Shown here: positions 10,667 through 44,075 of the stretch, piece after piece
Numbering within the stretch: position 1 is the stretch's first letter
Layout of the letters: each line of letters starts with the position of its first letter
Origin: JBDRCC01 sp043822065 [NCBI: archaeon]
GTDB taxonomy: Archaea > Undinarchaeota > CAZHTU01
Reading direction: 5' to 3'
NCBI GenBank assembly: GCA_043822065.1
Contig: JBDRCC010000001.1
Span: 19,332-83,331 of the forward strand
DNA length: 64,000 nucleotides
Notes under the pieces: generated by a model
Database searches by the model: none
What the model was told of the DNA's origin: nothing
Seen by the model: only the letters and a program-made list of their open reading frames with translations
Program-made: the position numbers and the translations under genes

Positions 10667-10691
10667 TGTACCTAGTAGATAAGCGCGGCGT

Positions 10692-10701: not shown

Positions 10702-10749
10702 TTTTGTTTTGCAGGGCGGCAGGGGAAAAGCTTAGCTAGGGGATGCGGG

Positions 10750-10784: not shown

Positions 10785-10806
10785 ATGACTCTGAGTATCC
10801 TAAATT

Positions 10807-12564: not shown

Positions 12565-12586
12565 GGCTTGGCTAAGCAAATTATTG

Positions 12587-12615
12587 ATTTAAAGGTTTGG
12601 GTAAATATTTAATAA
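12587..12615. promoter_or_regulatory. Divergent promoters of carS and the AIP synthase gene
   Basis: The reverse-strand TATA CTTTAAATC (12587-12595) serves carS, and the forward TATA AATATTTAATAA (12604-12615) serves the gene at 12635. Both are 25-28 nt from their start codons, so both mRNAs would be leaderless. Confidence 0.55.
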
Positions 12616-12634
12616 GGCTGGGTTTAGTCGTATT

Positions 12635-13336: not shown

Positions 13337-13764
13337 ACGTTGAAGAGGTAATGACCAAGGACGTCGTCGTCATAACAAAGGGCGCCAGTGTGAAAGACGC
13401 AATAGACTCGATTGTCCAGTTCCACGTCGGCTGCGTGCTTGTCATTGAGAACAGCACCGCAATCGGCATAGTGACCGAGCGGGACGTCCTCAAGAAGGTC
13501 ATCTCGCCAGGGAAGGACCCCAACCTCCTAAAGGTGGAGGACATAATGTCCACGCCACTGGTCACGGTTGAGCCAGACAGCAGCATAGAAGCGGCAGGGG
13601 CACTGATGGTCGAGAACAATATCAAGAAGCTGCCCGTAGTAAGAGATGGGGAGCTGGTAGGCATACTGACTGCGACGGACATCGTAGCTAACGAGCCGCG
13701 ACATGTCATTGAGCTTTCCGAGCTGATGCTGAAAAGCGGCGTTGAAGCAGGCGTTGGTGGCTAA
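13333..13764 (+). CDS. CBS-domain pair protein
   Basis: 143 aa consisting of two tandem CBS domains (about 7-60 and 70-125), with no catalytic partner. Typical strands are VEDIMSTPLVTVEPDSSIEA and NNIKKLPVVRDGELVGILTA. Such stand-alone modules bind adenine nucleotides and act as energy sensors. The start is GTG 13333, which overlaps the upstream stop; the last base of its stop overlaps the first base of the htpX ATG. Confidence 0.88.
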   Translation: MNVEEVMTKDVVVITKGASVKDAIDSIVQFHVGCVLVIENSTAIGIVTERDVLKKVISPGKDPNLLKVEDIMSTPLVTVEPDSSIEAAGALMVENNIKKLPVVRDGELVGILTATDIVANEPRHVIELSELMLKSGVEAGVGG

Positions 13765-14729: not shown

Positions 14730-14746
14730 GCTAACCCGCTATTTTC

Positions 14747-16087: not shown

Positions 16088-16137
16088 TTTGAAACCCCCT
16101 TACATTTCATAACTAGAATATAGGGATATGGCTGATG

Positions 16138-18063: not shown

Positions 18064-18173
18064 GCTCCGGTAGCCTAGTTTGGATAAGGCGTCAACGGAA
18101 ATTGGAAAAACCCAAATCCGGCGCAAGCCTTCTAAGCTGAAGACCGCGGGTTCAAATCCCGCCCGGAGCGCCA
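18064..18173 (+). tRNA. tRNA-Arg (anticodon TCT) with intron, CCA encoded
   Basis: Acceptor GCTCCGG/CCGGAGC, D arm GCCT/AGGC, T arm GCGGG-TTCAAAT-CCCGC, discriminator G18170, encoded CCA 18171-18173. A 32-nt intron (about 18095-18126, one-base ambiguity) interrupts the 5' strand of the anticodon stem. Removing it gives a perfect TCAGC/GCTGA stem and loop CTTCTAA with anticodon TCT. The intron is therefore at position 29/30, not the canonical 37/38. It folds internally through CGGA/TCCG and TTGG/CCAA. Confidence 0.9.
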
Positions 18174-23801: not shown

Positions 23802-24854
23802 ATGAGACACATAGTTAAGAAAAATATTAGCGGAAACGAGTATTATTATTTTCAACTCAAGCTAGCGTCGATAGACCCAAAAAAGGAGCCGTATCTGTAC
23901 AGCAAGTACATTGGCGAGTATTTGCCGTCAGAGTCTGTTCTAAAAAACTTTTTAATGAAGCGGGCGGAAGATTTGGCGATAATTACTGCGAGTAACCTTG
24001 GTAAGGGCATACGTACATATTTCAGAAATGGACCGGATATTAAAGAAGTAGAAAGGGATAGATGGTGGTTTTATTTTATTAACAATTACGATCTTTTTGA
24101 GGATCAAAATTCTACGTATCAGTCATTATTTGCCATACTATTTACGCTCCATACAAATGTAATAGAGGGCTCCAAAATGAGACAAGACGATATTATCGCC
24201 ATGACTAGTGACTCCCGGAAGAAAGTAGTCACCTTCGAAGAGAAAGAGGTCACAAATACCCTGGATGCACTCAAGTTTTCAGTTTCTAATGAAATGAAGT
24301 GGAATGTATCTTCAATAAAAAAACTTCATAGTAAGATATTGCCGGATGACCCCTTGGCCGGAAAATTTAGGATACGGGAGGTGGAGGTTGGTGATGCGAC
24401 GCGAACGCGACTGTACAATACCGTGGAACCGCAAAAAATTAGAAAAGAACTTAGAGAGTTACTTTACTGGTTCAACAGGGAACATAACAAGGTATATCCT
24501 CCTCAACTAGCTCTTGAATTCCATTGGAGATTTGAGAGAATCCACCCATTTCAAGATGGAAATGGGCGAGTAGGGAGATTACTGCTAAATAGAATACTAA
24601 TTGAGCACCACTTCATGCCAGTGATTTTCTTTTCGGAAAACGTTAGACAGTATTACGATGCAATAGCGCAAGCTAGAAACGGTAATTCTAGCAAGTTAGC
24701 TACGTTTTTCCTTAGGCAAAATAAAAAAACAAAGGAAGCCATGGAGCGTTTTAAAAGGGAAGGTATTGTCTCAGGACGGCGCTCTAGGATAGGTAGATGG
24801 ACGATTAAAAGAGGAAAAACACCGAAAGAGTACGACGTAGAGGCCGAGGAATAA
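23802..24854 (+). CDS. Fic-domain protein (AMPylase-type), class II
   Basis: 350 aa Fic/DOC enzyme, expected to transfer AMP (or another nucleotide) to a hydroxyl side chain. The catalytic motif HPFQDGNGRVGR (248-259) is intact. An inhibitory motif TNVIEG (118-123), matching (S/T)xxxE(G/N), lies N-terminal to the Fic core, which defines class II self-inhibited Fic proteins. The C-terminal 45 residues are basic. The gene is visibly more AT-rich than its neighbours, with its own operator cluster, indicating lateral acquisition. Confidence 0.92.
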   Translation: MRHIVKKNISGNEYYYFQLKLASIDPKKEPYLYSKYIGEYLPSESVLKNFLMKRAEDLAIITASNLGKGIRTYFRNGPDIKEVERDRWWFYFINNYDLFEDQNSTYQSLFAILFTLHTNVIEGSKMRQDDIIAMTSDSRKKVVTFEEKEVTNTLDALKFSVSNEMKWNVSSIKKLHSKILPDDPLAGKFRIREVEVGDATRTRLYNTVEPQKIRKELRELLYWFNREHNKVYPPQLALEFHWRFERIHPFQDGNGRVGRLLLNRILIEHHFMPVIFFSENVRQYYDAIAQARNGNSSKLATFFLRQNKKTKEAMERFKREGIVSGRRSRIGRWTIKRGKTPKEYDVEAEE

Positions 24855-26626: not shown

Positions 26627-28351
26627 TTGCTAGGGATATCTGCAAGCAAGACAAAGAGAATTTTGGCCTACGCAAAGCCGCATCTAGGGCTGATGGCGCT
26701 TGTCTTCCTGGTTATGATAGTCGCCACGGCGCTCGGGCTCGTCAACCCGTACCTTATGAAGATATTAATCGACGACGTCCTCGTCGCCGGAAACCTCAGG
26801 CTCTTTGCATACGTGCTCGGCGCGTATATTGTGGTGATGGTGATTGCGATAGGGGTTACCATCGCGCTCAGCTATTATTCCACGCTCCTGACTGAGCGGA
26901 TTGCACTTGACGTGAGGAGGCAGCTGTTCAACCACATTGAGTCGATGTCCCTCGGCTTCTTCAAGGAGCGCAAGACGGGGGACATAGTGTCGCGGCTGAT
27001 GACAGACGTCTATGGGGTGCAGTCGTACATAACGACGTTCATGAACGGCATAGTGCTGAACATCATAACCCTGGTGATAATATTCGCAATAACGATGTCA
27101 ATCAACTGGCAGATTACGCTGATTTCCCTCTACATCGTGCCGTTTTATATCTGGGCTGAGAAGTACTACGGCAACCTGATGCGGAAGCAGAGGAGGAAGC
27201 TGCGGGAGCAAAGCGCAGACATGCTGGGCTTCCTTGAGGAGAACATAAACTTCGTCAAGCTGGTCAAGAGGTTCCACAGGGAGGAGTATGCCGAGGCGGA
27301 CTTCAAGAGGCGGGCGGAGAAGATGCTCAAGCTGGACGTCAAGGCGTCGCTCACGGGCGGGCTGGCTTCAAGCTTCATCGCGCTTGTGACATTCCTGCCC
27401 CTACTTGTCATCTTGGGGATTGGCGGCTACCAGGTGATAAAGGGGATGCTTACCATCGGCGGGATGATTGCGATATACACTTATATCGGCAAGCTGTTCG
27501 AGCCGATTGACAGCCTGAACTCCTCGGTCATGTCCCTCCAGGGCGCGCTTGCGTCCGTGGACCGCGTGTTTGAGTTCCTCGACAAGAAGGAAAAGATAGT
27601 GGACGCCCCTGACAGCGTGGCTGTCAAGTCCCTGAAGGGGGAGATAGAGTTCAAGAAAGTCAGCTTCAAGTTCAAGGACAAGGTCATCCTGGACAACGCA
27701 AGCTTCAGGATAAAGCCTGGCGAGCAGGCTTATCTCATCGGCGCCAGCGGGAGCGGGAAGAGCACGATTGGCGACCTGATATTCAGGTTCTACGACCCGG
27801 ACAAGGGGCAGGTGCTCATTGACGGCATGGATGTAAAAAAAATCAAGATTGGCTCCCTGCGCGAGCGGCTGGGGATTGGCTCGCAGGAGCTGATACTCTT
27901 CAATACCACGATTGCCGACAACATCCGCTTTGGCAAGACGCACGCAAAAATGGAGGAGGTAAAGGCGGCGGCGAAGACTGCGCAGGCTGCGGACTTCATC
28001 GAAAAAATGCCGGAAGGCTACGAGACAGTAGTAGGGCCTGGCGGCGGGCTTCTTTCCGGCGGGCAAAAGCAGAGGATATCCCTATCGAGGACGATTCTGC
28101 ACAACCCGGACATCTACATACTTGACGAGGTAACGACCGGGCTTGACCCGGAGTCTGAGAAAAAGATAGAAAGCGCCCTGCGGGAAGTGACCAAAGGCAA
28201 GACGACGGTGTACATAACTCACAAGCTCCGCTCTGCAAAAGGCGCGAAGAGGATTCTCTTCTTGAGGGACGGGAAAATAGTAGAGGATGGAAGCTTCGAC
28301 GCGTTGCTCAAGAAGAAAGGAGATTTTTACAAGTTCTACAAAGAAGGATAA
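26627..28351 (+). CDS. ABC exporter, fused membrane and ATPase domains
   Basis: 574 aa half-transporter of the MsbA/lipid-peptide exporter type. Six membrane helices in about 1-310, then an ATPase domain with Walker A GASGSGKST (about 372-380), signature LSGGQKQR and Walker B IYILDEV. It lacks an N-terminal C39 peptidase domain, so it does not itself cleave leader peptides. Base composition is that of the host chromosome, but it lies immediately upstream of the AT-rich peptide-modification island and could export its product (inference). TTG is the most upstream start consistent with the TATA box. Confidence 0.9.
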   Translation: MLGISASKTKRILAYAKPHLGLMALVFLVMIVATALGLVNPYLMKILIDDVLVAGNLRLFAYVLGAYIVVMVIAIGVTIALSYYSTLLTERIALDVRRQLFNHIESMSLGFFKERKTGDIVSRLMTDVYGVQSYITTFMNGIVLNIITLVIIFAITMSINWQITLISLYIVPFYIWAEKYYGNLMRKQRRKLREQSADMLGFLEENINFVKLVKRFHREEYAEADFKRRAEKMLKLDVKASLTGGLASSFIALVTFLPLLVILGIGGYQVIKGMLTIGGMIAIYTYIGKLFEPIDSLNSSVMSLQGALASVDRVFEFLDKKEKIVDAPDSVAVKSLKGEIEFKKVSFKFKDKVILDNASFRIKPGEQAYLIGASGSGKSTIGDLIFRFYDPDKGQVLIDGMDVKKIKIGSLRERLGIGSQELILFNTTIADNIRFGKTHAKMEEVKAAAKTAQAADFIEKMPEGYETVVGPGGGLLSGGQKQRISLSRTILHNPDIYILDEVTTGLDPESEKKIESALREVTKGKTTVYITHKLRSAKGAKRILFLRDGKIVEDGSFDALLKKKGDFYKFYKEG

Positions 28352-28371
28352 GAATAAGTAGGAATGCATAA

Positions 28372-28382
28372 TCTAAATAAAG
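28372..28382 (+). promoter_or_regulatory. TATA box of the first island radical SAM gene
   Basis: TCTAAATAAAG centred about 28 nt before ATG 28405; leaderless. It separates island transcription from the ABC exporter. Confidence 0.5.
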
Positions 28383-28404
28383 AAACTAAAGCATATAAGC
28401 CATT

Positions 28405-30195
28405 ATGAAAATTCTGCTAATAGAGCCCAATGTACAAACATCAAATTACGTGTCCCAACGGGACTACAGGGACAATGGTGAGTTGGAGTCACCATGGGCA
28501 GGCTATCTAGCCGCAGTTATAGGTAGAAGGCATGATATAAAGTTCATAAATTGCTCGTTTCCCCCAACGGATAGTAGCGGATACTTTAGTATTAAAAGAA
28601 AGAAGAGCATTACCGATATTGAAATTTTGAACAACTTTAGAAAGTTCTCACCTTCGGTAGTCGCGTTTACATCTTATGAAAAATCATTTGAGAGAGTAGT
28701 AAAATTGGCAAAAAAGTTCAAGAGGACAAACCCAGCGTGCAAGATAGTCTTAGGTGGGCATTACCCAACGTTCACCTATACGCAATTGTTAGATGGGACG
28801 TGGTGCGATATCGTGGTTGTTGGTGAGGGATTCATTACCATAAAAGAATTAGTGTCATGTATAAACGCTGGAAAAAGCTTTGATGAAGTTAAAGGAATAG
28901 CCTATTTAGAGAATAATAGGATAGTTTATACTGGACGACGGGAGCCATTAAAAGATTTGGACGTTTTACCGTTTCCAGATAGGCAGATATACCCAAAATG
29001 CAAGGAGCTTACGGATAGCAGCATACTAATTATATCGTCGATGGGCTGCCCGTGGGGAAAATGCACATTTTGCAGTATTGGGGCGTTTTATAATGGGCGA
29101 CATTATGCAACACGATCGGCTAAAAACATTCTTGACGAGATTGAGTCAGTAGCTAGGGTAAGGGAAGTAAAATCAGTCCATTTTGTCACGGAAGGGGCAC
29201 TTTATCAGCTAAAAAGCATTATAAATGAAAAAGTAAAACGAGGGCTAAATTTTAAATTTACATTAGAGGCAAGGATTGATGAGATCCTAAGATTTAAAGA
29301 CAGTATAAGCTACGCAAAAAAAAATGGATTGGACGGGTTTCTTATAGGCATAGAAGTATTTTCCGACAGGATTTTAAAAATATTTAATAAAGGTTTGACC
29401 TGTGACAAAATAATATCTGCGCTCGACTACTTAGATGATTTGAGGATACCTAAATTGCTAGCATTTATTCCGTTTTCACCCTGGATAACCCGGGAAGAAT
29501 TTTTATACAATCTTAGAATGATGCTAAATTGCGCAGTCTGGAAAGATCCAAGACTGTATTATATCCCGTTAAACGAAATCTTTCAAGAGGTTGAGTTTTA
29601 CGCTGGAACTGAATTGCGAAAGCAGTATGGTAGGAGTTTAGATTATGAGAATGCGGACCTAAAAAAGGCGCTAGATAGGATGACTCATATACGAAGTATC
29701 AATAAACGCGTAGGGGATGCGGACACTGGCTCAGTAAGACTAAAATGGATCTCACTTGCGAGATATGTAGCTGGCAGTATTAGGGCGAAGAGTAAGTATC
29801 ATGGTAAGGGGATACCTGGGATCGGCCTAAATGCACAATACATAACAATAAACAAAGAAGACACGCCTTGCTTAATAAACAAAGATAGGACAATATATCG
29901 CCTTAATGGAAAGGAGTTGCGCGCAATGAGGGAATTAAAGCAAAAATCGCCTAATTTGTATGAAGAGATAGGGATGGTGATACTGCCCAGCAAGTCATAT
30001 TTAGTAGATGTTATGCGCAAGAGGGCCGCGCCTATAACAAAAGAACAGCTTGTTTTTGCGCAGTATTCTCTAATGGGGTTGACTGAAGGGGAGATACGCA
30101 AGCAATTCGAGTATGAAAAACTGAGGTACGCCCCGGGCAACATAAAAAGGTATTTAAATATAAAGAGAGATAGTTTGTATCGGAGGGAGGTATAA
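28405..30195 (+). CDS. B12-binding-type radical SAM enzyme (island enzyme 1)
   Basis: 596 aa. Residues 1-185 form a Rossmann-like domain of the cobalamin-binding class (MKILLIEPNV, VLGGHYPTF, VVVGEGFITIKEL). The radical SAM core starts near 205. Its cluster motif is C215-PWGK-C220-TF-C223, that is CX4CX2C instead of the common CX3CX2C. A ~200-residue C-terminal extension is unassigned. It ends 1 nt before a small peptide gene with a strong ribosome site, so the two are co-expressed. Likely a peptide or small-molecule tailoring enzyme; substrate unknown. AT-rich codon use points to transfer. Confidence 0.88.
   Translation: MKILLIEPNVQTSNYVSQRDYRDNGELESPWAGYLAAVIGRRHDIKFINCSFPPTDSSGYFSIKRKKSITDIEILNNFRKFSPSVVAFTSYEKSFERVVKLAKKFKRTNPACKIVLGGHYPTFTYTQLLDGTWCDIVVVGEGFITIKELVSCINAGKSFDEVKGIAYLENNRIVYTGRREPLKDLDVLPFPDRQIYPKCKELTDSSILIISSMGCPWGKCTFCSIGAFYNGRHYATRSAKNILDEIESVARVREVKSVHFVTEGALYQLKSIINEKVKRGLNFKFTLEARIDEILRFKDSISYAKKNGLDGFLIGIEVFSDRILKIFNKGLTCDKIISALDYLDDLRIPKLLAFIPFSPWITREEFLYNLRMMLNCAVWKDPRLYYIPLNEIFQEVEFYAGTELRKQYGRSLDYENADLKKALDRMTHIRSINKRVGDADTGSVRLKWISLARYVAGSIRAKSKYHGKGIPGIGLNAQYITINKEDTPCLINKDRTIYRLNGKELRAMRELKQKSPNLYEEIGMVILPSKSYLVDVMRKRAAPITKEQLVFAQYSLMGLTEGEIRKQFEYEKLRYAPGNIKRYLNIKRDSLYRREV
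30182..30190 (+). promoter_or_regulatory. Strong ribosome-binding site of island peptide 1
   Basis: GGAGGGAGG ends 6 nt before ATG 30197, inside the last codons of the radical SAM gene. It stands out because almost all other island genes appear leaderless. It would give the peptide higher translation than the enzyme. Confidence 0.7.
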
Positions 30196-30196
30196 A

Positions 30197-30379
30197 ATGC
30201 CAGAAATTAAAAAACTTAATCCGCCAACAGTTGACAAAATAGTGACTAACATGGGGAAAGTGAATTTAGCTCCAGAGTCAATAACGGCTATTCGTGGGGT
30301 TATAAAGGAACAGAAAGATGGCGCCGACACAAATATTGTTGACTGCAAAGGCAACCCGAACATGCTGGGTCAGAAATAG
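30197..30379 (+). CDS. Putative RiPP precursor peptide 1
   Basis: 60 aa, no recognised family. The ATG follows the radical SAM stop by one base, with a strong Shine-Dalgarno site. Residues 12-24 read VDKIVTNMGKVNL, closely matching VERIVSNLKNLHL in the second island peptide (31872-32003): both fit V-(D/E)-(K/R)-I-V-(S/T)-N-(L/M)-x2-(L/V)-x-L. The C-terminal part has a single Cys (DTNIVDCKGNPNMLG) suited to modification. Leader/core division is inferred, not shown. Confidence 0.65.
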   Translation: MPEIKKLNPPTVDKIVTNMGKVNLAPESITAIRGVIKEQKDGADTNIVDCKGNPNMLGQK

Positions 30380-30427
30380 TTAGGATAGTTGTAGTAACAT
30401 ACGCTTTACGCGCTACTTGGCTTTATG

Positions 30428-31798
30428 CTAGTAGCAATTTTTTATTTTTGGCAGGGTATCCTCGATTAGCACGTCATACTCGGCTATATCTATGGGTTTG
30501 GTAAGAAGTCTGCCGAGGAAATATTTCACAACGTCTTTCATTGGGGTGCATATCTCCTTAGACGGTTTGAATAATGATCCTGTGAAGCTAAGATTATTAT
30601 ACGGACAATAGCCCGCGCATATGTACTTACAAAAACAGGAAGCGCAGGCATTTATACGATGGACAGTAATATTTCGTATTAAATTAAGCTTCTTGGGATT
30701 TATGCGCACCTTGTTGCCGTTTATTGAGCCATAAACAAAAGTATTGCATACGCTATCGGTAAGATCGGATGCAACCAAACAAGAGAGTATTTTACCTCTG
30801 GGGTGAACCACAAACAAAGGGCCACTTGAGTTGCATCCATAAATGGTCAACCCAAATGGGCTCATCTGCAGACCCGACAGATAGATGCCATGTTTCTCAG
30901 CAAACTCTATGCAGCGCAATGATTCGTGCACAAACTTTTCAAGATCAGGTAGTTGCAAGGCAGATGCCCTGCCAAACTGCCGGCATGGAGCGAAAGAAAC
31001 CCGCTTTATCTTTAGGGAAACAAAATGCTTAAGAATTTCCATCATACGCCCCTCACAGTATTTTGTAAAGGTTGCAGATACCCCATAGGAAACGCCGTAT
31101 TTATTAAACATGGCTATAGTTCGTCTAACGGAGTGGTATGATTTGTTTCCAGACAGCAAAGGCCGCTGTGCATTCTGAATAGAGGGGGGACCGTCAAAAG
31201 AAAGCTGGACATGCGCGCCGATTTTTTTAAACCATTTAACCTGCGATTCATTCAATGTCCCGTTAGTGGTAGAGCTAACCCTGAGTTCAATCCCTCGTGC
31301 ATCACACTCCTTTTTTGCATAAGAGTAACAGCGTTTCATTAAATCAAACGCAAGGCTGGGTTCGCCTGCAGAAAAAAGCGATAGAAGGAAGGTTTTGTCA
31401 CTTTTTTTAATTCCGTAGTCTATTGCTGTCTTTGCTATGCTCCACGGCATGTAATAAACCGTAGTACTGCCAGTATTGGAACAACAATAAGTACAGCGCA
31501 TATTGCAATCAGTAGTCAATAGGAGAGTTACAGTAGGTATGGTAGATAACGCCGCCCTCAAGGTAGGCACGGTATCTTGGGAGTCAACGAATTTGAAAAA
31601 TCCTGTGACTAATCGGTGATTAGTATTTCTTTGCTCTACAAATTCCTTGTTTACGAGCGCAAGTATTCCCTTTTTTGGGACATAAATTATGTACTTGTTC
31701 GATTCGTAGGGAATAGTAAAGTGTTTGGATTTTGTTTTTGAAGGAACTGTCTTAGAATAACATATTTTCACGCTTTTGTATATCTTAGGCGCAGCCAT
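30428..31798 (-). CDS. Radical SAM/SPASM peptide-maturase-like enzyme (island enzyme 2)
   Basis: 456 aa. N-terminal ~85 residues form a beta-rich region that could bind a leader peptide. The radical SAM cluster is C98-NMR-C102-TY-C105, then SAGEPSLAF for SAM binding. The C-terminal SPASM region has Cys322, Cys340, Cys385, Cys388, Cys390, Cys394, Cys398 and Cys417, enough for two auxiliary iron-sulfur clusters. SPASM enzymes of this layout modify ribosomal peptides (thioether, C-C links) or activate sulfatases; with two peptide genes beside it the first role is favoured. Convergent with peptide 1, divergent from peptide 2. Confidence 0.88.
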   Translation of the reverse strand: MAAPKIYKSVKICYSKTVPSKTKSKHFTIPYESNKYIIYVPKKGILALVNKEFVEQRNTNHRLVTGFFKFVDSQDTVPTLRAALSTIPTVTLLLTTDCNMRCTYCCSNTGSTTVYYMPWSIAKTAIDYGIKKSDKTFLLSLFSAGEPSLAFDLMKRCYSYAKKECDARGIELRVSSTTNGTLNESQVKWFKKIGAHVQLSFDGPPSIQNAQRPLLSGNKSYHSVRRTIAMFNKYGVSYGVSATFTKYCEGRMMEILKHFVSLKIKRVSFAPCRQFGRASALQLPDLEKFVHESLRCIEFAEKHGIYLSGLQMSPFGLTIYGCNSSGPLFVVHPRGKILSCLVASDLTDSVCNTFVYGSINGNKVRINPKKLNLIRNITVHRINACASCFCKYICAGYCPYNNLSFTGSLFKPSKEICTPMKDVVKYFLGRLLTKPIDIAEYDVLIEDTLPKIKNCY

Positions 31799-31819
31799 TG
31801 AAGTGTAGTACCTACCTAA

Positions 31820-31850
31820 CTTTAAATAGTATTTGACAATATTTATATCC
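31820..31850. promoter_or_regulatory. Divergent promoters of the SPASM gene and peptide 2
   Basis: Reverse TATA in CTTTAAATA (31820-31828) is 26-28 nt from the SPASM ATG. Forward TATA ATTTATATCC (31841-31850) is 26 nt from ATG 31872. Both mRNAs would be leaderless, and the two genes share one control region. Confidence 0.6.
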
Positions 31851-31871
31851 TATTGCCATATTATATTATTG

Positions 31872-32003
31872 ATGGTTTCAGTAGTGCACCCACTATTAAA
31901 AAAGGATGTAGAACGGATTGTTTCAAACTTGAAGAACTTGCATTTGGAGGATGCAGAGGCTAATGAGTTTATTGAACAGATAAGTGATCTATGTAGTGGC
32001 TAA
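31872..32003 (+). CDS. Putative RiPP precursor peptide 2
   Basis: 43 aa, short and easily missed. It is supported by a TATA at leaderless distance and by similarity to island peptide 1: residues 13-25 VERIVSNLKNLHL against VDKIVTNMGKVNL. It ends EFIEQISDLCSG with a single Cys three residues from the C-terminus. Divergent from the SPASM enzyme and overlapping the kinase-like gene by 4 bp tail to tail. Precursor role is inferred from context. Confidence 0.6.
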   Translation: MVSVVHPLLKKDVERIVSNLKNLHLEDAEANEFIEQISDLCSG

Positions 32004-33010
32004 GAGAGTTGATTGATAAGATACGCTATTCTTTGTCTTTGTGTTTCTGTTTTTGATTGAGCCAACTCGTGTTTCAATATCTGGATGGCAGTATCGAAGT
32101 TTTCACGAGGGGGAAATTCTATAAACAGATTTTTTTTCGTCAGCTTTTTTCCAATATACGCCTCGACGATCTTCTTTTCTGATTGTTTAGCTGGGATGGG
32201 TCTATCGCTCTGTAAAAAAGCGCGTGCAAAGGAAGTTATAAAATATTTTTTTCTGTTTGGGAGAATGTGGTCGATATCTGAAAATAAGCGATATAACGCC
32301 AACACTCTAAAACGAGGCTCAGTATTTGGCATTACGCCCTCCCAGGTACCGCCATACGTAGGTTCAAAATCAGCTATTTCCCCTTCAGTCGTTATGTTGT
32401 TTAATTCCATAGCACCATGGTATAGCCCAATATCAAACATTTTTCTTATGCTCTTGCCAAGGGTACTTGCGAGATAGTTGCAGTATTCCTTTTCAGTTTG
32501 TTTGCGGATCGCAAGATAGGCGTTTAGTATATCTGTTTCGAAGAGGAAGTCTGAGAGCCGCAACGGAGAAGCGAATGTTCTGGCAATAACTGCTAGTTTC
32601 TTCCCCTCGAAGGTACCATAATCGTAGCAACCAACTGGCCTCTGGCAAAAGACCCCTGCGTTAAATGCTATTTTAGAGAGATTATGTTCTGCTAATGCTG
32701 TGGGGAGTTCAACTCCGCCCCATGCAAACCGGTTTAGTAGCCGTATCTTTTGCCCCTCAAAACCAATCCCTTTGTATTCTATTCCAGGATACCATTGGTC
32801 CCCAGATCTCCACGGGACATAGAACCAAGCTGATCTTGATGAGTGGCTTTCAAGGCAGGTAATGTTCCCAGGGCGTACTGACAAGGCTGGAACGGGAATC
32901 TGCACATGTTCTTTAAAATAGAATTTTGTTTTTGCAGTTGAAAAATTATAACACTTGGGGTAGACCCTCCGGCTTAGTTTCCATACGTCCTCCAAAAAGT
33001 TCTTGACCAT
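32000..33010 (-). CDS. Atypical kinase-fold-like protein (island)
   Basis: 336 aa, no family recognised with certainty. The order of elements suggests a protein-kinase/aminoglycoside-kinase fold: a glycine-containing strand pair and helix near 96-120, a hinge-like strand LAVIARTFASPLRLSDFL (139-156), HGAMELNNI (198-206) in place of a catalytic HxDxxxxN loop, and ADFE (213-216) in place of DFG. The catalytic Asp is Ala, so it may be a pseudokinase or use another mechanism. Reverse TATA GCTATATAAA at 33041-33050. Confidence 0.6.
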   Translation of the reverse strand: MVKNFLEDVWKLSRRVYPKCYNFSTAKTKFYFKEHVQIPVPALSVRPGNITCLESHSSRSAWFYVPWRSGDQWYPGIEYKGIGFEGQKIRLLNRFAWGGVELPTALAEHNLSKIAFNAGVFCQRPVGCYDYGTFEGKKLAVIARTFASPLRLSDFLFETDILNAYLAIRKQTEKEYCNYLASTLGKSIRKMFDIGLYHGAMELNNITTEGEIADFEPTYGGTWEGVMPNTEPRFRVLALYRLFSDIDHILPNRKKYFITSFARAFLQSDRPIPAKQSEKKIVEAYIGKKLTKKNLFIEFPPRENFDTAIQILKHELAQSKTETQRQRIAYLINQLS

Positions 33011-33040
33011 GTCTGTGCACTTAGAAGTACCAATAGGGGA

Positions 33041-33099
33041 TTTATATAGCTTACTTTGCAGAATACGAACACTTCATCTTGAGGCAAATGTTAAATAAA
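33041..33099. promoter_or_regulatory. Divergent promoters, kinase-like gene / radical SAM 3
   Basis: Reverse TATA 33041-33050 (GCTATATAAA) serves the kinase-like gene with a leader of about 8 nt. Forward GTTAAATAAA (33090-33099) is 27 nt from ATG 33122. Confidence 0.5.
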
Positions 33100-33121
33100 T
33101 GTAGCTATAAGAGAGTATACG

Positions 33122-34429
33122 ATGAGAATAGCTTTGATAACCCCAGTCCAGACGTTTAATAGGGCAGTTGAGATTATTCCATACCCAAGTCTTGGATTAC
33201 TATATCTCGCAGCGTATCTTGAAAAAAAAGGACATAAGGTAAGAATAATAGACCTGCCTTTTTTAATGATAAAAAACAAGGAGAATATGACTTTTTCTAG
33301 GGTTAGAGAGATTCTCAAAGAGTACAACCCAGATGTGATTGGGATAACCACACGGTGCCTGGATTATCCTTTTGATATACTGCTAGCACGGAATATAAAG
33401 AGGTTCATCAAAAAACCAATAATCTTTGGAGGTGTGCAGGCAACGCATACTGCTTACGACACGATAAAGGAGTTCAAGTGGGTAGATTTTGTTGTGAAGG
33501 GGGAGGGAGAGGTAACATTTATTGAACTCTTGACCGCCATTAAGGAAGGCAGACCATTCAATGAGGTGAGAGGTATTGTGTATAGAGAGGGCAACCGCGT
33601 AATTGAAACGAAAGACCGCCCATTCATTGAGGATATTGACTGTCTTCCTTTGCCAGCGTATCATTTGATACCAAAAGTAAAGAAGTACGGTTTAGACGCA
33701 ATCCCTCTCATAACAACACGTGGGTGCCCCTTCAACTGCGCTTTCTGTTCGGTCTCAACAATGTGGAAAAGGACATTACGATGTAGGGGTGTACGCAGCA
33801 TTATGCAGGAGATTAAACGGGAAAGAAAACGGCAGGGATTGAACCATGTTTCAATAAAGGATGACACGTTTACAGTAGATAATAGACGGCTCAAGATTTT
33901 GTGTAGAGAGTTCAAAAAAGAGGGAGTTACGTGGACTTGCTTTTCAAGGGTAGACACGATAGATGAAGATATGCTTGAGCTTATGAAGGATAGTGGGTGT
34001 AACGGTATTTTTTATGGTGTTGAGTCAGCTTCGGTAAGAATACTGAAAAAAATAAGAAAGGGTGATAAAAGATTTTTGGAGAATGCCAGAAAAAATATTA
34101 AGAAGTGCCATGAGCTAGGTTTAGAACAGATTGTGTCGTTTATAATAGGATTTCCTAGTGAAACTGAGAAAGAAATCGCTAAAACGGTTGATATGGCGGA
34201 GAAAATGAAAAAACGGGGTTGCTCTACACAAGTTCATTTCCTCAGCCCGCTCTCTGGGTCGGACATCTATAAGAGCAATAAGAACAATTTAATATTTGTA
34301 GGCCACTCGTCAGACGTATCTAGTGTCCGTGGCTTGAGTAAGAAATATGTGGATTTGATAAAGAAGTACCCACATATTTTCCCTCAATTTTATATTATTA
34401 AAAACAGTGCACTTGCGAAATGGATTTAG
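33122..34429 (+). CDS. B12-binding-type radical SAM enzyme (island enzyme 3)
   Basis: 435 aa of the BchE/methylthiotransferase-like cobalamin class. The N-terminal domain (1-175) includes YPSLGLLYLAAYLEKKGHKV and FGGVQATHT, and the radical SAM cluster is C202-PFN-C206-AF-C209. Further SAM-core strands are FYGVESAS and SFIIGFPSETE. Likely methylates or rearranges an unactivated carbon. Similar domain layout to island enzyme 1 but with the canonical CX3CX2C motif. AT-rich like the rest of the island. Confidence 0.87.
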   Translation: MRIALITPVQTFNRAVEIIPYPSLGLLYLAAYLEKKGHKVRIIDLPFLMIKNKENMTFSRVREILKEYNPDVIGITTRCLDYPFDILLARNIKRFIKKPIIFGGVQATHTAYDTIKEFKWVDFVVKGEGEVTFIELLTAIKEGRPFNEVRGIVYREGNRVIETKDRPFIEDIDCLPLPAYHLIPKVKKYGLDAIPLITTRGCPFNCAFCSVSTMWKRTLRCRGVRSIMQEIKRERKRQGLNHVSIKDDTFTVDNRRLKILCREFKKEGVTWTCFSRVDTIDEDMLELMKDSGCNGIFYGVESASVRILKKIRKGDKRFLENARKNIKKCHELGLEQIVSFIIGFPSETEKEIAKTVDMAEKMKKRGCSTQVHFLSPLSGSDIYKSNKNNLIFVGHSSDVSSVRGLSKKYVDLIKKYPHIFPQFYIIKNSALAKWI

Positions 34430-34443
34430 GCGTTTTACGCGAT

Positions 34444-36069
34444 TCAATTAAAAAATTTATCAAAGTTGATTAGCAGTTCTTGTGAGTCTTCATCCTTGAG
34501 CAATACTCCTTTTCCGACTGTGTTGTAGACCAAGTCGATATGCATACTGCAAGAGATGTCACCGTAAAAATTTGTATTCCGACCAAGTGCAATATGGAAT
34601 GAGTTTCTTTGCTTTTCATCGAGTAATGGGCTGCCAATTGGTCTATTGCCAAGGAAACCTATGCCAAACTCACCCATGTACGGGAAGCTATCAGTATCCC
34701 CAAAGCTCTTTGCTTGGTCAAACATTTCCGCAACCACTTTAGAATTGCGAGCTGCAGACCATTTGGCTACCTTTCCGTTTTTAAAAGTAAGATGCAGACC
34801 TTCAATTTTTTTTCCAAAGTAGAATACCTCATCGAATAGTATTTTGCCATTTGTTTTTTCTTTTAGCGGTGCGATAAAGACTTCTCCTGATGGGATATTA
34901 AGGGAATATTTGGCGCCTTCTTTCTGCTCGTCATCTATCAAAGCCCTGCGACCGTCCGTACTAAACCTCAGCTCAAGCGAACCATCTTTAGAGGACAACA
35001 AGAGATTTTTGCGATTTCCTATAAGAAGTTTAGCGTTATGCATTTTTTCGCGAGGCAGATTTAAAAAAATAGAGAGGGCGTCCTCGAGAACCCTGCAAAG
35101 GTCAGTATAATTAGAATAACTTAGTGCTGATCTGTTTGCTTTGAAATCAGAATAGCTAGGGTAATCCACTAGTATATGTGTGGCATGCCTGTGCCTTTTT
35201 TCGATAACCTCCTTAAGAGTATCAGAAAACCTTTGCGGTTTCCATTTGATTTCGTGGCCAGATGCATTATCCTCTTTCATAAAGTTTATCGTCCCGTTGA
35301 CATAAGCTGCCCGGTTGTAGTCCGACTTTCGCATCACATTGAGTATAGCATTATGCGCATCGCGGTTTAAGGCTACAAAATATTTTAGGTCCCCAGCATC
35401 ACCAGTCCCATGGCAGCCTTTCTTCCAAAGGGCATCTAAAAGAGAATACGCCATTTGTAGAATAGCTGGAACGCCAAATTCAGTACCTATACTTACCCAA
35501 GACTTTTTGGGGTAGTCATAAAAATCGTTAACTATGTAATCCGCAAGCTTTGCATGATTTGGATAAGCAAATTCCATAAGACGAGCGCGCTGTTTGGCAG
35601 TGTAGGTGTAATAAATCCGTTTCCCATTTTTTAATTTCAAGAAGCGAGTTCGAGGATATCCTGGAAAAGCAGGTTGGAATATGGTTAGTAGGTCTTGACC
35701 GGCTACATTTGTATGGTTAAGATATTGTGAAAAGTTTTTTGATTTTTCTTTGTTTAGATCATTTTCATCAAAACGCGAAAAAACTATTCTTTTATTGAAA
35801 TCGGACTTCAATTTTTCCGAAAAAATGGAGTCATAGCGCCTATCGTCAAAAATGCAGATTTTGGAAAGGGCGCCCACTTTAGCAAATTTCTCGGTCAGGG
35901 AGTACGCAAGTTCTATTTGAGCTAAAACATTTGGGTTGATTTCAAAGAGGATGTCATCCTTTTCAGATGGATCTATTCTGGTGACTATTTCCTCTTCTAG
36001 CCCCATTGGGTAACAGTACCTGCTAGTTGCTTTTGTGAGTGAGGGGCTGTAGGATATGTACGGATCCAT
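34444..36069 (-). CDS. M29-type aminopeptidase homologue with long N-terminal domain (island peptidase)
   Basis: 541 aa from ATG 36067-36069, chosen because it is 27 nt from the reverse TATA at 36091-36100. The C-terminal half matches M29 thermophilic aminopeptidases: NIPSGEVFIAP (Glu396), GEFGIGFLGNRPIG (Glu467), FHIALG (His492) and SMHIDLVY (His510, Asp512) line up with the metal ligands, so it should be active. The N-terminal ~300 residues (ordinary M29 proteins are ~410 aa) are unassigned. In this island it could trim leader or modified peptides. Confidence 0.8.
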   Translation of the reverse strand: MDPYISYSPSLTKATSRYCYPMGLEEEIVTRIDPSEKDDILFEINPNVLAQIELAYSLTEKFAKVGALSKICIFDDRRYDSIFSEKLKSDFNKRIVFSRFDENDLNKEKSKNFSQYLNHTNVAGQDLLTIFQPAFPGYPRTRFLKLKNGKRIYYTYTAKQRARLMEFAYPNHAKLADYIVNDFYDYPKKSWVSIGTEFGVPAILQMAYSLLDALWKKGCHGTGDAGDLKYFVALNRDAHNAILNVMRKSDYNRAAYVNGTINFMKEDNASGHEIKWKPQRFSDTLKEVIEKRHRHATHILVDYPSYSDFKANRSALSYSNYTDLCRVLEDALSIFLNLPREKMHNAKLLIGNRKNLLLSSKDGSLELRFSTDGRRALIDDEQKEGAKYSLNIPSGEVFIAPLKEKTNGKILFDEVFYFGKKIEGLHLTFKNGKVAKWSAARNSKVVAEMFDQAKSFGDTDSFPYMGEFGIGFLGNRPIGSPLLDEKQRNSFHIALGRNTNFYGDISCSMHIDLVYNTVGKGVLLKDEDSQELLINFDKFFN

Positions 36070-36090
36070 AGAATATACTTGTACCAAGGG

Positions 36091-36130
36091 CTATAAAAAG
36101 AATAGCATGGAGGGATAAACGTTAAATAAG
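36091..36130. promoter_or_regulatory. Divergent promoters, M29 peptidase / pentose phosphate operon
   Basis: CTTTTTATAG on the reverse strand (36091-36100) serves the peptidase. CGTTAAATAAG (36120-36130) serves ATG 36157. This is also the right-hand composition boundary of the AT-rich island. Confidence 0.5.
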
Positions 36131-36156
36131 CGCAGATACTTCTTACCTGCGGGGAC

Positions 36157-36795
36157 ATGGAAGTAAAGATTGCGCCATCGATTTTATCAGCGGATTTTGC
36201 AAGGCTAGAGGACGAGATAAAGCGCATCGAGGACGTGGCGGATTGGATTCATGTCGATGTGATGGACGGGCACTTTGTGCCGAACATATCAATCGGCGTA
36301 CCTGTGGTGCGGAGCGTAAGCAGGATTACCGACCTGCCGATTGACACCCACCTGATGATAAGCAACCCGATGGGCTTCCTAAAGCCGTTTTCGGAGGCGG
36401 GGTCGGACTACATATCCGTGCACGCGGAGGTGTGCAAGGACCTTTCAGAGCCGATAGCTGCTATACACGGGCTTGGCAGGAAGGCAGGGGTGGTATTCAA
36501 CCCCAATACGGGGGTCAAGCCGCTCTGGAATGTGATTGACGAGGTGGATTACGTGCTTGTTATGGCGGTCATGCCGGGCTTCTCCGGGCAGAAGTTCATG
36601 CCCGAGGTCCTGAAGAAGGTCGAGGAGATAAGGAACCGGTCCGACATCGACATCCAGGTGGACGGCGGGATAAATATTAATAATGCGAAGTCATGTGTAG
36701 AAGCTGGGGCAAACATTCTCGTTGCCGGAAACGCTGTCTTCAAGGCGGAGGACCCGCGGAAGGCGGTGTTAGAGCTTAAAGAGTGCGCTGAATGA
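36157..36795 (+). CDS. rpe: Ribulose-phosphate 3-epimerase
   Basis: 212 aa TIM barrel. Interconverts ribulose- and xylulose-5-phosphate. Clear motifs: KIAPSILSADFARLEDEI, IHVDVMDGHFVPNIS, THLMISNP and VMAVMPGFSGQKFMPEVL; IQVDGGIN carries the second catalytic Asp. First gene of an operon whose members overlap by ATGA: rpe, transketolase N, transketolase C, transaldolase, Trm-G10. Confidence 0.96.
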   Translation: MEVKIAPSILSADFARLEDEIKRIEDVADWIHVDVMDGHFVPNISIGVPVVRSVSRITDLPIDTHLMISNPMGFLKPFSEAGSDYISVHAEVCKDLSEPIAAIHGLGRKAGVVFNPNTGVKPLWNVIDEVDYVLVMAVMPGFSGQKFMPEVLKKVEEIRNRSDIDIQVDGGININNAKSCVEAGANILVAGNAVFKAEDPRKAVLELKECAE

Positions 36796-41762: not shown

Positions 41763-43148
41763 ATGAGATATCCCATTCAGTTCGTTGCAAAAATATGTTA
41801 CGATAAGAGGTCGCACTACTGCGTTGTTATGCCAAAGAAATTATGTGTAGACAACTCTCTGCACTCCGGTGACATTCTTAAGCTGAGAATCGGTGAAAAG
41901 ACTATATTTGTAAAGTTAAAAAGACGGTGCAAATCACTTACATTTACTATTAGCGCTAAGATAGGTAGAATGTTTGATACAAAGGAAAATGTTACAATTA
42001 TGGAAAAGTTGGAACTTAGAAAACCTGATAGTGAGGATATTGTTTTTGAAGGGGGTAATGTAGACCTTTATAGGTCACTGCCAATATACTCCACTAGAGC
42101 TAAATTAGAATGGAATTACTGTTTATTGGACGATTCTCTACTACTATGCATAGAACCTAAACATGTACGCGGAACGGAATTTAAATACATAATAGTTCCT
42201 CAGTACCTTGATGTCGAAAAGCTAGGTTTGATGTGTGGGTTGATCTTTTCTGATGGTTTCAAAAAATTTGGCTTTGAGGATTTCTATGGTGAAAAATGTA
42301 AGACTACTACTACGTTTCAATTCACCAATGGAGATCCTTGTGTAATAAAATTATTTACGACATTAACGAGAGATTTACTCGAGATAGAACCATCTGAGTA
42401 CAACGGAAATTTGTCATTTCCGCAGAAACTTTCTGAAGAGAAGACAGATAAAATTAGAAGATTCTGGGAAGATTCTTATGGTGTTAGGATTAAGTTAATA
42501 TCTTTTAGAGATACTAAGAATAATAAGTGTCCGTGGGGGATAGCTACTATTAGGATACATAAAATGGTATTGGCAGAATTCGTCGTGAGTCTGCTCAGAA
42601 AATTGTTGAAGTGGACACTCTGCTCTCAAGACAAATTGGCGTACATTTTTAAGAAAGAGTTTATCAGAGGCGCATTAATAGGTGATGGCTCACCGATACT
42701 CGACAAAGGTGTATTGAGACGGTATATGATAAGTATCGAAACTAAAAAAGAGGGCGAACTTTACGTAGAACTGCTGAATTCTCTTGGAATAGAATCTCGG
42801 CTGTTATGGACGAAAGATGAGAAGGTAGCACCATATTTGAGGAAGGTTGATCTGCGAGGAGAATATAAATTCCTAGAAAAAATAGTTTATGCCTTTCCGC
42901 TTGGCATATTTATTAACGGCGACTTTTTAGGGTCTTTAGAGAAAGAACTAAAAGCGCTTCATGGATTGTTTCGACATTCTAAGTGCCATGTTAAAGATCA
43001 CAAAAAGTTAATAGACCTTGCTGAGAAGATAGATGTGAGGTTTAAAGCTGATTTATATAAACTTAAAGAAGCTGGTATTCAACTCCCAAAAGTTTATGAG
43101 GAGTACTGCCTAAATAGAATACCATTGCCTATCAAAAGTAGAAAATAA
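41763..43148 (+). CDS. LAGLIDADG homing endonuclease with AbrB-like N-terminus
   Basis: 461 aa. N-terminal ~55 residues resemble a SpoVT/AbrB swapped-hairpin DNA-binding module (HYCVVMPKKLCVDNSLHSGD, then a beta strand). Two LAGLIDADG helices follow: LGLMCGLIFSDG (154-165) and FIRGALIGDG (300-309), with candidate catalytic Asp164 and Asp308, so it is a single-chain pseudo-dimer. It is free-standing with its own start and stop, not an intein. It ends 3 bp before the tyw1 ATG. Confidence 0.85.
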   Translation: MRYPIQFVAKICYDKRSHYCVVMPKKLCVDNSLHSGDILKLRIGEKTIFVKLKRRCKSLTFTISAKIGRMFDTKENVTIMEKLELRKPDSEDIVFEGGNVDLYRSLPIYSTRAKLEWNYCLLDDSLLLCIEPKHVRGTEFKYIIVPQYLDVEKLGLMCGLIFSDGFKKFGFEDFYGEKCKTTTTFQFTNGDPCVIKLFTTLTRDLLEIEPSEYNGNLSFPQKLSEEKTDKIRRFWEDSYGVRIKLISFRDTKNNKCPWGIATIRIHKMVLAEFVVSLLRKLLKWTLCSQDKLAYIFKKEFIRGALIGDGSPILDKGVLRRYMISIETKKEGELYVELLNSLGIESRLLWTKDEKVAPYLRKVDLRGEYKFLEKIVYAFPLGIFINGDFLGSLEKELKALHGLFRHSKCHVKDHKKLIDLAEKIDVRFKADLYKLKEAGIQLPKVYEEYCLNRIPLPIKSRK

Positions 43149-43151
43149 GAG

Positions 43152-44075
43152 ATGTATAAAAGTTTTGCTGGAGAGTTACAAGAAGCATTGAAAAAGCAAC
43201 ACTATGGTATATTCGGTAAACATTCTGCCGTAAAAGTTTGCGAATGGACGAAAAAAAGTTTGACGGAGAATAATGTATGTTATAAAGAATCCTTCTATAA
43301 AATAAAGAGCCACCAGTGCATGGAGATGACTCCTGCCGCCGGCTTCTGCAACTTCAGGTGCACGTACTGCTGGAGGAAGCACGAGCTGAACCAAGGTGCA
43401 GATATGGAGGGGATTAAGATAGACGAGCCGGCTGGCATTATTGACGGCCTTGTCCAGGAGCGGAAAAAGCTGCTTATCGGGTTCAAGGGGAATGATAAGG
43501 TTGACCAAAAAAAGCTGCAGGAGGCGATGAGCCCGAAGCACGCCGCGATTTCGCTGACGGGGGAGCCTACGCTTTACCCGAAGATTGGGGAGATGATTGA
43601 TGAGTTCCATAAGAGGAAGATGACGACGTATTTGGTTACGAACTGCTCGCGGCCGGATGTGCTTGAAAAAATACCGGAGCCGACCCAGCTGTACCTGAGC
43701 GTGACATCGCCGACTGAGGAGGCATTCAAGCGGATTAATGTTCCGCTGGAACGGGGCGCCTGGAGTAAGGTGCAAAAGACGCTGGAGCTTGTGCCGAGCT
43801 TCTCATGCCCGACCGTGATGCGGCTGACCATGATTGCAGGGCACAACATGGGCTTGGGCAGGGAGTTCGCGAAGGTCGTCAGCAGGGCTCAGCCGAGGTA
43901 TGTGGAGGTAAAAAGCTTTATGCTGATTGGCGGGGCGAGGCACAGGAACCTGACCCTGGACAACATGCCGAAGCATGAGGAGCTCAGGGAATTCTCAAGG
44001 AAGCTTGCGGAAGAGACATCATATAGTATTAAGGACGAAAAGGCAGACTCGAGAGTAGTGCTACTTAGCAAGTGA
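43152..44075 (+). CDS. TYW1 radical SAM enzyme of wyosine biosynthesis (5' end apparently replaced)
   Basis: 307 aa archaeal TYW1 (4-demethylwyosine synthase) acting on m1G37 of tRNA-Phe. GIFGKHSAVKVCEWTKKSL and SFYKIKSHQCMEMTPA precede the cluster motif C66-NFR-C70-TY-C73-WR; ISLTGEPTLYP and YVEVKSFMLIGGAR follow. The first ~52 codons are AT-rich and the remainder GC-rich; an older start lies 1.5 kb upstream at 41658. The protein appears complete and functional in spite of the insertion. Confidence 0.93.
   Translation: MYKSFAGELQEALKKQHYGIFGKHSAVKVCEWTKKSLTENNVCYKESFYKIKSHQCMEMTPAAGFCNFRCTYCWRKHELNQGADMEGIKIDEPAGIIDGLVQERKKLLIGFKGNDKVDQKKLQEAMSPKHAAISLTGEPTLYPKIGEMIDEFHKRKMTTYLVTNCSRPDVLEKIPEPTQLYLSVTSPTEEAFKRINVPLERGAWSKVQKTLELVPSFSCPTVMRLTMIAGHNMGLGREFAKVVSRAQPRYVEVKSFMLIGGARHRNLTLDNMPKHEELREFSRKLAEETSYSIKDEKADSRVVLLSK

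What the first reader, a model, noticed from the sequence alone, without database searches (positions are those of the whole stretch)
28370..36100. Candidate new archaeal RiPP (modified peptide) system
Seen: an AT-rich island with three radical SAM enzymes (CX4CX2C at 28405-30195; SPASM type at 30428-31798; CX3CX2C at 33122-34429), a kinase-like protein, an M29-type metallopeptidase and two short peptide genes directly beside the enzymes. Known: SPASM and B12 radical SAM enzymes are common RiPP maturases, and such clusters need precursor peptides, a leader protease and an exporter. Inferred: the peptides are precursors, the M29 homologue is the protease, and the upstream ABC exporter secretes the product. 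I know of no described system with this exact enzyme set.
Basis: partly seen in the sequence, partly recalled or inferred. Interest (0 to 1): 0.93.

Follow-up and report, generated by a model that had tools for sequence, protein, structure and literature searches.

The report
Candidate archaeal modified-peptide gene island
A foreign-looking stretch of DNA in an archaeon carries three radical enzymes, a peptidase-like protein and two tiny genes that look real, which together resemble a factory for a chemically modified peptide, but no relative was found to prove it.

Summary
The genes described are there. A block of about 7.7 kb (28405-36069), GC3 0.37-0.43 against about 0.7 in its neighbours, holds two B12-binding radical SAM enzymes, a SPASM radical SAM enzyme with the SPASM cysteine motif, an M29-type protein with its metal ligands, a kinase-like orphan and two short genes. 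Both short genes look real: they rank first and second of 69 short ORFs on coding score. One has a strong Shine-Dalgarno site just behind the first enzyme gene; the other has a TATA-like box at the right distance. A peptide-modifying (RiPP) cluster is the best reading.

The ABC exporter has native composition and is not part of the block. The kinase-like protein lacks the usual catalytic Asp. The two peptides resemble each other only weakly. The decisive test, conservation beside the enzymes in relatives, could not be run: the window's genome is not held and its lineage could not be reached. No relative of the kinase-like gene or of the peptides was found in what was searched. The three radical SAM enzymes score below the cut-offs of all NCBIfam families listed. 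Verdict: probable new variant of a known kind, unproven.

The parts
28405..30195 (+). P0002: B12-binding radical SAM enzyme, 596 aa, CX4CX2C, with a C-terminal extension (about residues 435-596) that no fetched relative covers
   Evidence: Pfam Radical_SAM and B12-binding; motif; matches in the 105 loci then in hand reach residue 434 at most
30197..30379 (+). P0001: 60-aa short gene, candidate precursor, one Cys (residue 50)
   Evidence: Best held-out codon score of 69 short ORFs; GGAGGGAGG before the ATG, one base between the P0002 stop and this start
30428..31798 (-). P0003: radical SAM/SPASM enzyme, 456 aa
   Evidence: CX3CX2C and SPASM motifs; NCBIfam nif11-like maturase 140 bits, PapB 125, SCIFF maturase 112, all below cut-off; best PDB sequence match 5wgg, E 6.6e-22
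31872..32003 (+). P0007: 43-aa short gene, candidate second precursor, one Cys (residue 41)
   Evidence: Its ORF (31833-32003) has the second-best codon score of 69; TATA-like TTTATATC at -30, a match that 1.6% of 250 other island ATGs reach
32000..33010 (-). P0004: kinase-like orphan protein, 336 aa, HGAMELNN ... DFE
   Evidence: Weak Bud32 hit E 0.027; profile comparison with 25 Bud32-like sequences; no significant match in Pfam or PDB, none in plasmids or phages at E 0.1
33122..34429 (+). P0005: second B12-binding radical SAM enzyme, 435 aa, CX3CX2C
   Evidence: Pfam; NCBIfam ApyD 257 bits, cut-off 750; motif
34444..36069 (-). P0006: M29-type metallopeptidase homologue, ATG start at 36069 (a TTG at 36087 is also possible); about the first 200 residues without known family
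   Evidence: PF02073 62.7 bits over residues 362-505; ligands E402, E473, H498, H516, D518 (numbered from the TTG) aligned with eight M29 proteins

Best explanation
The island is a horizontally acquired RiPP-type biosynthetic cluster. Shown: one compositional block with open reading frames for two B12 radical SAM enzymes, one SPASM radical SAM enzyme, an M29-type protein with an intact metal-ligand set, a kinase-like protein lacking the catalytic Asp, and two short genes with expression signals. Inferred: P0001 and P0007 are precursor peptides with an N-terminal leader and a short C-terminal core holding a single Cys. The SPASM enzyme would make a thioether or C-C crosslink in the core, the B12 enzymes would add methyl groups or do further C-H chemistry, the kinase-like protein would act as a non-phosphorylating or altered partner, and the M29 protein would trim the product. 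Export, if any, is by a host transporter not carried in the island.
For: All seven genes share GC3 0.37-0.43, both short genes included. The short genes rank 1 and 2 of 69 on held-out coding score; one has a Shine-Dalgarno site, the other a TATA-like box. The eight best NCBIfam profiles of P0003 (25 of 53 shown) are maturases of peptides or of a small enzyme subunit, and its best PDB match, 5wgg, is the SCIFF maturase CteB by my recall. SPASM motif complete. The best NCBIfam profile of P0005 is the RiPP enzyme ApyD. M29 ligands kept. P0001 starts directly behind P0002.
Against: No relative of either peptide was found (P0001 in viral contigs; both against 105 loci), so conservation beside the enzymes is untested. 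Leader similarity of the two peptides is weak: 519 of 20000 shuffles score as high, and each is only tied fourth to sixth among the window's other short ORFs in similarity to the other. The three radical SAM enzymes are far below the cut-offs of named RiPP maturase families, and the best profile of P0002 is BchE, not a RiPP enzyme. No RiPP recognition domain was shown. The exporter is not in the island. The closest fetched relatives of P0005 (33-34% identity) lie beside a radical SAM gene with no short precursor-like gene that I could see. The codon score has little power: P0003, surely a real gene, scores below zero when held out. The TATA consensus was chosen after I had seen such boxes by eye; P0003 and P0004 do not reach it (5 and 3 of 8).
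Confidence: 0.55

Rival explanations
1. The enzymes act on a lipid, sugar or other small molecule, and the two short genes are regulators or incidental small proteins.
For: B12 radical SAM enzymes are widespread: 97 of 292 genomes sampled from the Thermoplasmata phylum match P0002 at E <= 1e-12. The closest fetched relatives of P0005 sit in L106 and L107 next to another radical SAM gene, without a short precursor-like gene that I could see. NCBIfam lists BchE, HpnJ, HpnR and phosphonate enzymes among the best profiles of P0002 and P0005.
Against: P0003 is nearest to peptide and protein maturases, and both short genes share the composition of the block and look expressed.
Confidence: 0.22
2. 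The peptides are scaffolds for a small redox cofactor or metal-binding compound, in the manner of PQQ or mycofactocin, released by digestion of the peptide by the M29 protein, and kept inside the cell.
For: No exporter in the island, an intact M29-type ligand set, a single Cys near the C-terminus of each peptide, and several quite different enzymes for very short cores.
Against: No evident dehydrogenase or other user of a cofactor among the seven genes. The P0001 C-terminus does not resemble PqqA or MftA as I recall them. The mycofactocin maturase profile gives P0003 39 bits, cut-off 265.
Confidence: 0.15
3. The island is a recently acquired, unselected or decaying cluster with no present function.
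For: Sharp compositional difference from neighbours and the Ala in place of the catalytic Asp in P0004.
Against: The reading frames are open, the radical SAM motifs, SPASM cysteines and M29 ligands are kept, and four of seven genes have a TATA-like box matching 7 of 8 at -30 to -33.
Confidence: 0.08

Closest known systems
SPASM peptide maturases of the ranthipeptide, SCIFF and nif11-like groups (PapB NF047865, TIGR03974, TIGR04064)
   Same: Radical SAM core CX3CX2C plus SPASM cysteine motif; adjacent short genes; 5wgg (CteB by recall) is the best PDB sequence match
   Different: 112-140 bits against cut-offs of 340-519; the peptides have one Cys each, not the Cys-rich cores that I recall for these groups
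ApyD of the aminopyruvatide pathway
   Same: B12-binding radical SAM enzyme in a RiPP cluster; best NCBIfam profile of P0005
   Different: 257 bits against a cut-off of 750; that pathway also uses a cytochrome P450 (start of abstract seen in the listing), absent among the seven genes here
RiPP radical SAM C-methyltransferases (TIGR03975, rSAM_ocin_1)
   Same: B12-binding and radical SAM domains in P0002 and P0005
   Different: 82 and 117 bits against a cut-off of 282
M29 aminopeptidases (PepS, AmpS, AmpT)
   Same: Metal-ligand part of the protein with E, E, H, H, D; PDB matches to PepS, E 1.8e-4
   Different: About the first 200 residues have no match; about 540 aa against 408-418 for the solved ones; the Tyr of the published EEHYHD motif (abstract start seen in the listing) is not at the spacing that I recall
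Seven-SPASM cluster with Cys-rich peptide in an archaeal genome (L041)
   Same: SPASM enzymes, short peptide and a B12 radical SAM enzyme in one neighbourhood
   Different: CefB-like SPASM enzymes in tandem, Cys-rich peptide, no match to P0004 or P0006 in the 20 kb fetched; not homologous as a set

Membership tests
Radical SAM RiPP cluster (general) | Radical SAM maturase of peptide-modifying type | tested here: met
   P0003 has CX3CX2C and the SPASM motif; its best NCBIfam profiles are mostly peptide maturases, though below cut-off
Radical SAM RiPP cluster (general) | Short precursor gene beside the maturase that is a real gene | tested here: met
   P0001 and P0007: codon score rank 1 and 2 of 69; Shine-Dalgarno or TATA-like signal. 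That they are precursors is inferred
Radical SAM RiPP cluster (general) | Precursor conserved with the maturase across genomes | tested here: inconclusive
Radical SAM RiPP cluster (general) | RiPP recognition element | tested here: inconclusive
   No Pfam recognition-domain hit for the P0002 C-terminus or P0003 N-terminus; N-terminus of P0003 against the N-terminal part of six L041 SPASM proteins: E 0.011, but 2 of 200 shuffles and a P0005 segment score as high; P0002 model pLDDT 43
Radical SAM RiPP cluster (general) | Dedicated protease and exporter in the cluster | tested here: inconclusive
   M29-type protein with its metal ligands; the ABC exporter has native composition and lies outside the block
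Radical SAM RiPP cluster (general) | Modified peptide product | not testable with these tools
   Needs mass spectrometry
Ranthipeptide maturase PapB (NF047865) | Score above curated cut-off 340 | tested here: not met
   P0003 125.5 bits
SCIFF maturase (TIGR03974) | Score above curated cut-off 425 | tested here: not met
   P0003 111.9 bits
nif11-like peptide maturase (TIGR04064) | Score above curated cut-off 518.7 | tested here: not met
   P0003 140 bits
ApyD (NF050148) | Score above curated cut-off 750 | tested here: not met
   P0005 256.9 bits, P0002 93.9 bits
RiPP radical SAM C-methyltransferase (TIGR03975) | Score above curated cut-off 281.85 | tested here: not met
   P0002 81.7 bits, P0005 116.6 bits
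Peptidase family M29 (PF02073) | Score above curated cut-off 27 | tested here: met
   P0006 62.7 bits, profile positions 207-350 of 406
Peptidase family M29 (PF02073) | Metal-ligand set E, E, H, H, D | tested here: met
   Aligned with eight M29 proteins; the first Glu is present in 7 of those 8, the other four ligands in all
Peptidase family M29 (PF02073) | Tyr of the EEHYHD motif | tested here: inconclusive
   Thr stands at the spacing that I recall for the Tyr, but none of the eight comparators has Tyr there either
Protein kinase-like fold (Bud32 as yardstick) | Catalytic-loop Asp of HGD/HRD | tested here: not met
   HGAMELNN in P0004 against HGDLTTSN
Protein kinase-like fold (Bud32 as yardstick) | Fold | tested here: inconclusive
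   Single-sequence model pLDDT 36; 30-column profile match above 149 of 150 shuffles, hhalign probability 2%

The most novel reading that the evidence does not exclude
A new class of archaeal modified peptide: two single-Cys precursors processed by two B12 radical SAM enzymes and one SPASM enzyme together with a kinase-fold protein whose catalytic base is lost, used as a recognition or novel transfer partner, and an M29-type protease, which my searches did not find described in such clusters. The lack of an island exporter would fit an intracellular cofactor-like product.
Probability: 0.2. Interest if true: 0.75.

Novelty: new variant of a known kind. Interest (0 to 1): 0.5.

Why it matters
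RiPP clusters are predicted across archaea, DPANN included, with radical SAM types among the abundant classes, but a 2025 paper says that before its own work only two haloarchaeal lanthipeptides had been validated by experiment (PMC12144867, three passages read). A compact archaeal cluster with two B12 enzymes, one SPASM enzyme and short, simple cores would be a tractable way to see archaeal peptide chemistry, and a kinase-like protein without its catalytic Asp would be an unusual partner.

Tried and rejected
Searching for relatives of the set. P0004 in genome contigs found none; alanyl-tRNA synthetase gave five loci at 39-44% identity, one in a record titled Methanomicrobiales and four titled Thermoplasmata. 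I call their phyla Halobacteriota and Thermoplasmatota by recall; the tool does not name them. The synthetase matched 119 of 120 genomes of the first phylum; matches over most of its length were 39-48% identical with no close one. I could not name the window's own phylum. All genome samples below were drawn from larger groups. P0006 in 292 genomes of the second phylum matched 160; I fetched eight neighbourhoods of the best hits and they held no other island gene. P0003 matched 38 of 61 relatives of the first genome at E <= 0.001 and 13 of 292 of the second phylum at E <= 1e-8; the best hits are 24% and 28% identical. P0004 matched 0 of 392 and 0 of 292; the tool warns that without a positive control an empty answer shows nothing. 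P0002 matched 97 of 292 at E <= 1e-12; in the capped list no match goes past residue 420. P0005 was not itself searched in genomes. IMG/VR: P0002, P0004, P0006 and P0001 none; P0003 one at 27%; P0005 twenty at 25-33%; these scans need exact 8-residue matches. Plasmids: P0003 in 71 records, P0002 in 97, P0006 in 21, all under 60% identity; P0004 none, nor in phages. P0007 was not scanned in any collection, only blasted against the 105 loci then in hand.

Structure models of P0004 and P0002 were too poor to search (pLDDT 36 and 43), so no fold search was run. A PqqD-like recognition domain in the P0002 C-terminus, suspected by eye, had no Pfam support. No 8-base or longer repeat is shared by the two edges of the block (28340-28409 and 36060-36169). 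The defence library gave P0003 pVip at 30 bits and P0005 the candidate PDC-M51A at 67 bits; I take these as general radical SAM similarity. The sigma-70 promoter scan is not suited to archaea and was at chance level.
Full report
What is there. Between an ABC transporter gene (26627-28351) and ribulose-phosphate 3-epimerase (36157-36795) lies a block of seven genes whose composition differs sharply from its neighbours. Four have Pfam matches: P0002 (28405-30195, +) and P0005 (33122-34429, +) are B12-binding radical SAM proteins, P0003 (30428-31798, -) is a radical SAM protein with a SPASM motif, and P0006 (34444-36069, -) is M29-like. P0004 (32000-33010, -) is an orphan with a kinase-like motif. 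P0001 (30197-30379, +) and P0007 (31872-32003, +) are ORFs of 60 and 43 aa. GC3 is 0.37-0.43 in all seven. Of 28 other genes measured, 25 lie at 0.64-0.78; Fic (0.41) and a LAGLIDADG-like ORF (0.34) are low, and the low value printed for the transketolase C-terminal gene comes from a wrong start that I gave the script. The ABC transporter has GC3 0.76, and Pfam shows its two ABC domains but no C39 peptidase domain, so I read it as a native gene that happens to be next door.

Are the short genes real? I trained a codon score on the five long genes, leaving out any gene that overlaps the ORF scored. Of 69 ORFs of 25-140 codons in the block, P0001 came first (13.5 bits in all) and the P0007 ORF second (7.6 bits), the next best having 3.6. 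The score has limited power: held-out P0003 scores slightly below zero. Besides that, P0001 begins with one base between it and the stop of P0002 and has GGAGGGAGG before its ATG; three ATGs of the block have a Shine-Dalgarno-like 5-mer and the other two lie inside P0004. P0007 has TTTATATC at -30, a 7 of 8 match to an archaeal TATA consensus (recalled, and chosen after I had seen such boxes by eye). P0002, P0005 and P0006 also have 7 of 8 at -30 to -33; P0003 and P0004 do not (5 and 3 in that range). Among 250 other ATGs of the block 1.6% reach 7. I take both short genes as real with good confidence.

Are they precursors? That is inferred. Each has one Cys near the C-terminus and, by eye, a charged N-terminal part. 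They seem to share a stretch (VDKIVTNMGKVNL and VERIVSNLKNLHL), but the local alignment score is reached by 519 of 20000 shuffles, and each is only tied fourth to sixth among the window's other short ORFs (553 in all) in similarity to the other. So a shared leader is suggestive, no more. Neither has a significant match to a Pfam or NCBIfam model.

The enzymes. P0003 has the radical SAM motif CNMRCTYC, CX12GX4C and CX2CX5CX3C with later Cys residues, which is the SPASM layout as I recall it. Its best NCBIfam profiles are nif11-like peptide maturase (140 bits), PapB (125), SCIFF maturase (112), HxsB (101) and the quinohemoprotein amine dehydrogenase maturase (94), all far below their cut-offs (25 of 53 families shown). 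Its best PDB sequence match is 5wgg, which I recall as the SCIFF maturase CteB. P0005 is nearest to ApyD (257 bits, cut-off 750) and P0002 to BchE (123 bits, cut-off 481), with ApyD at 94 and the RiPP C-methyltransferase model at 82 bits. P0002 has a C-terminal extension that no fetched relative covers (best reach residue 434 of 596). P0006 aligns with most M29 proteins from about residue 350 onwards, with some from about 204-240, and keeps the ligands E402, E473, H498, H516 and D518, numbered from its TTG; its first 200 residues have no significant match. P0004 has no significant Pfam or PDB match and hits Bud32 at E 0.027. Against a profile of 25 archaeal Bud32-like sequences it aligns LASTLGKSIRKMFDIGLYHGAMELNNITTE to the catalytic loop: score 22.2, above 149 of 150 shuffles, with the other four long island proteins at 12.7-13.6, but hhalign probability is only 2%. 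The catalytic Asp is Ala in P0004, so ordinary phosphate transfer is doubtful.

Relatives. The window's genome is not held. The scan with P0004 in one genome for each of 84,980 species found nothing, but it needs exact 8-residue matches and is a weak test. The scan with alanyl-tRNA synthetase gave five distant hits in what I take to be two phyla, Halobacteriota and Thermoplasmatota; a wider look in the first found no close match. In samples of these phyla I found no P0004 (0 of 392 and 0 of 292 genomes), distant SPASM or radical SAM proteins (38 of 61 genomes at E <= 0.001; 13 of 292 at E <= 1e-8), M29 matches (160 of 292) and common B12 radical SAM proteins (97 of 292 at E <= 1e-12). Two loci of the second phylum (L106, L107) carry a B12 radical SAM protein 33-34% identical to P0005 next to another radical SAM gene, with no short precursor-like gene that I could see in a list of ORFs of 35 codons or more; this was judged by eye. 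It is the best evidence that enzymes like P0005 also work without a peptide. None of the 105 loci then in hand matches P0001, P0007 or P0004 at E <= 0.001.

Judgement. The set reads best as a RiPP cluster: one SPASM enzyme of peptide-maturase type, two very probably real short genes, and a peptidase homologue, moved in as one block. The claim rests on gene neighbourhood and motif, not on conservation or chemistry, so I put it at 0.55. A small-molecule role for the radical enzymes (0.22) and an intracellular cofactor-type product (0.15) remain open. The boldest reading I keep is a new class with a base-less kinase-fold partner (0.2).

Literature. Searches in an open-licence library: 'archaea, RiPP, radical SAM, precursor peptide, B12-dependent' gave 3 papers; DPANN with RiPP and biosynthetic gene cluster gave 9; radical SAM, SPASM, archaeal, RiPP, M29 gave 3 papers with at least four of the terms, none with M29; RiPP with four M29 phrases gave 5 papers with at least two of the terms, none of them holding RiPP; ApyD with radical SAM and RiPP gave 5, 3 listed; radical SAM and RiPP with four DPANN phyla gave 167 with at least three terms, 10 listed. 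Of these I read three passages of PMC12144867 and otherwise only listings and abstract starts. Those passages state that RiPP clusters are predicted across Asgard, TACK and DPANN archaea, with radical SAM types (ranthipeptides, sactipeptides) among the abundant classes, so an archaeal radical SAM RiPP cluster as such is not new. Nothing I saw describes this gene set.

Noticed in passing
L041 (G051:C1:2530000-2549900), 4464-16803: An archaeal genome (relative of a Methanomicrobiales record) has seven SPASM radical SAM genes in tandem (the three of seven tested are CefB-like, 241-320 bits, cut-off 600) behind a 58-aa Cys-rich peptide and an 84-aa ORF, with a B12 radical SAM gene nearby; the peptide was found in 1 of 60 related genomes, its own.
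   Followed up: partly
L106 7393-10314 and L107 6080-8895: Two genomes of the Thermoplasmata phylum share an adjacent pair of a B12 radical SAM gene (33-34% identical to P0005) and another radical SAM gene, without a short precursor-like gene evident by eye.
   Followed up: partly
window 9416-10666 (-): A serpin over its full profile length (Pfam E 3e-123) in an archaeal window.
   Followed up: no
window 41763-43148 (+): A second AT-rich ORF (GC3 0.34) with a weak LAGLIDADG match (below the family cut-off) lies 3 bases before a Tyw1-type gene (43152-44075); possibly a homing endonuclease.
   Followed up: no
window 23802-24854 (+): An AT-rich Fic-domain gene (GC3 0.41) close to the island, matching candidate defence models PDC-S04 and SoFic.
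   Followed up: no
window 18064-18170 (+) and 2305-2381 (+): Rfam finds a tRNA spanning 107 bases that ARAGORN does not call, perhaps holding an intron; ARAGORN in turn calls a tRNA-Pro at 2305-2381 that Rfam does not list.
   Followed up: no
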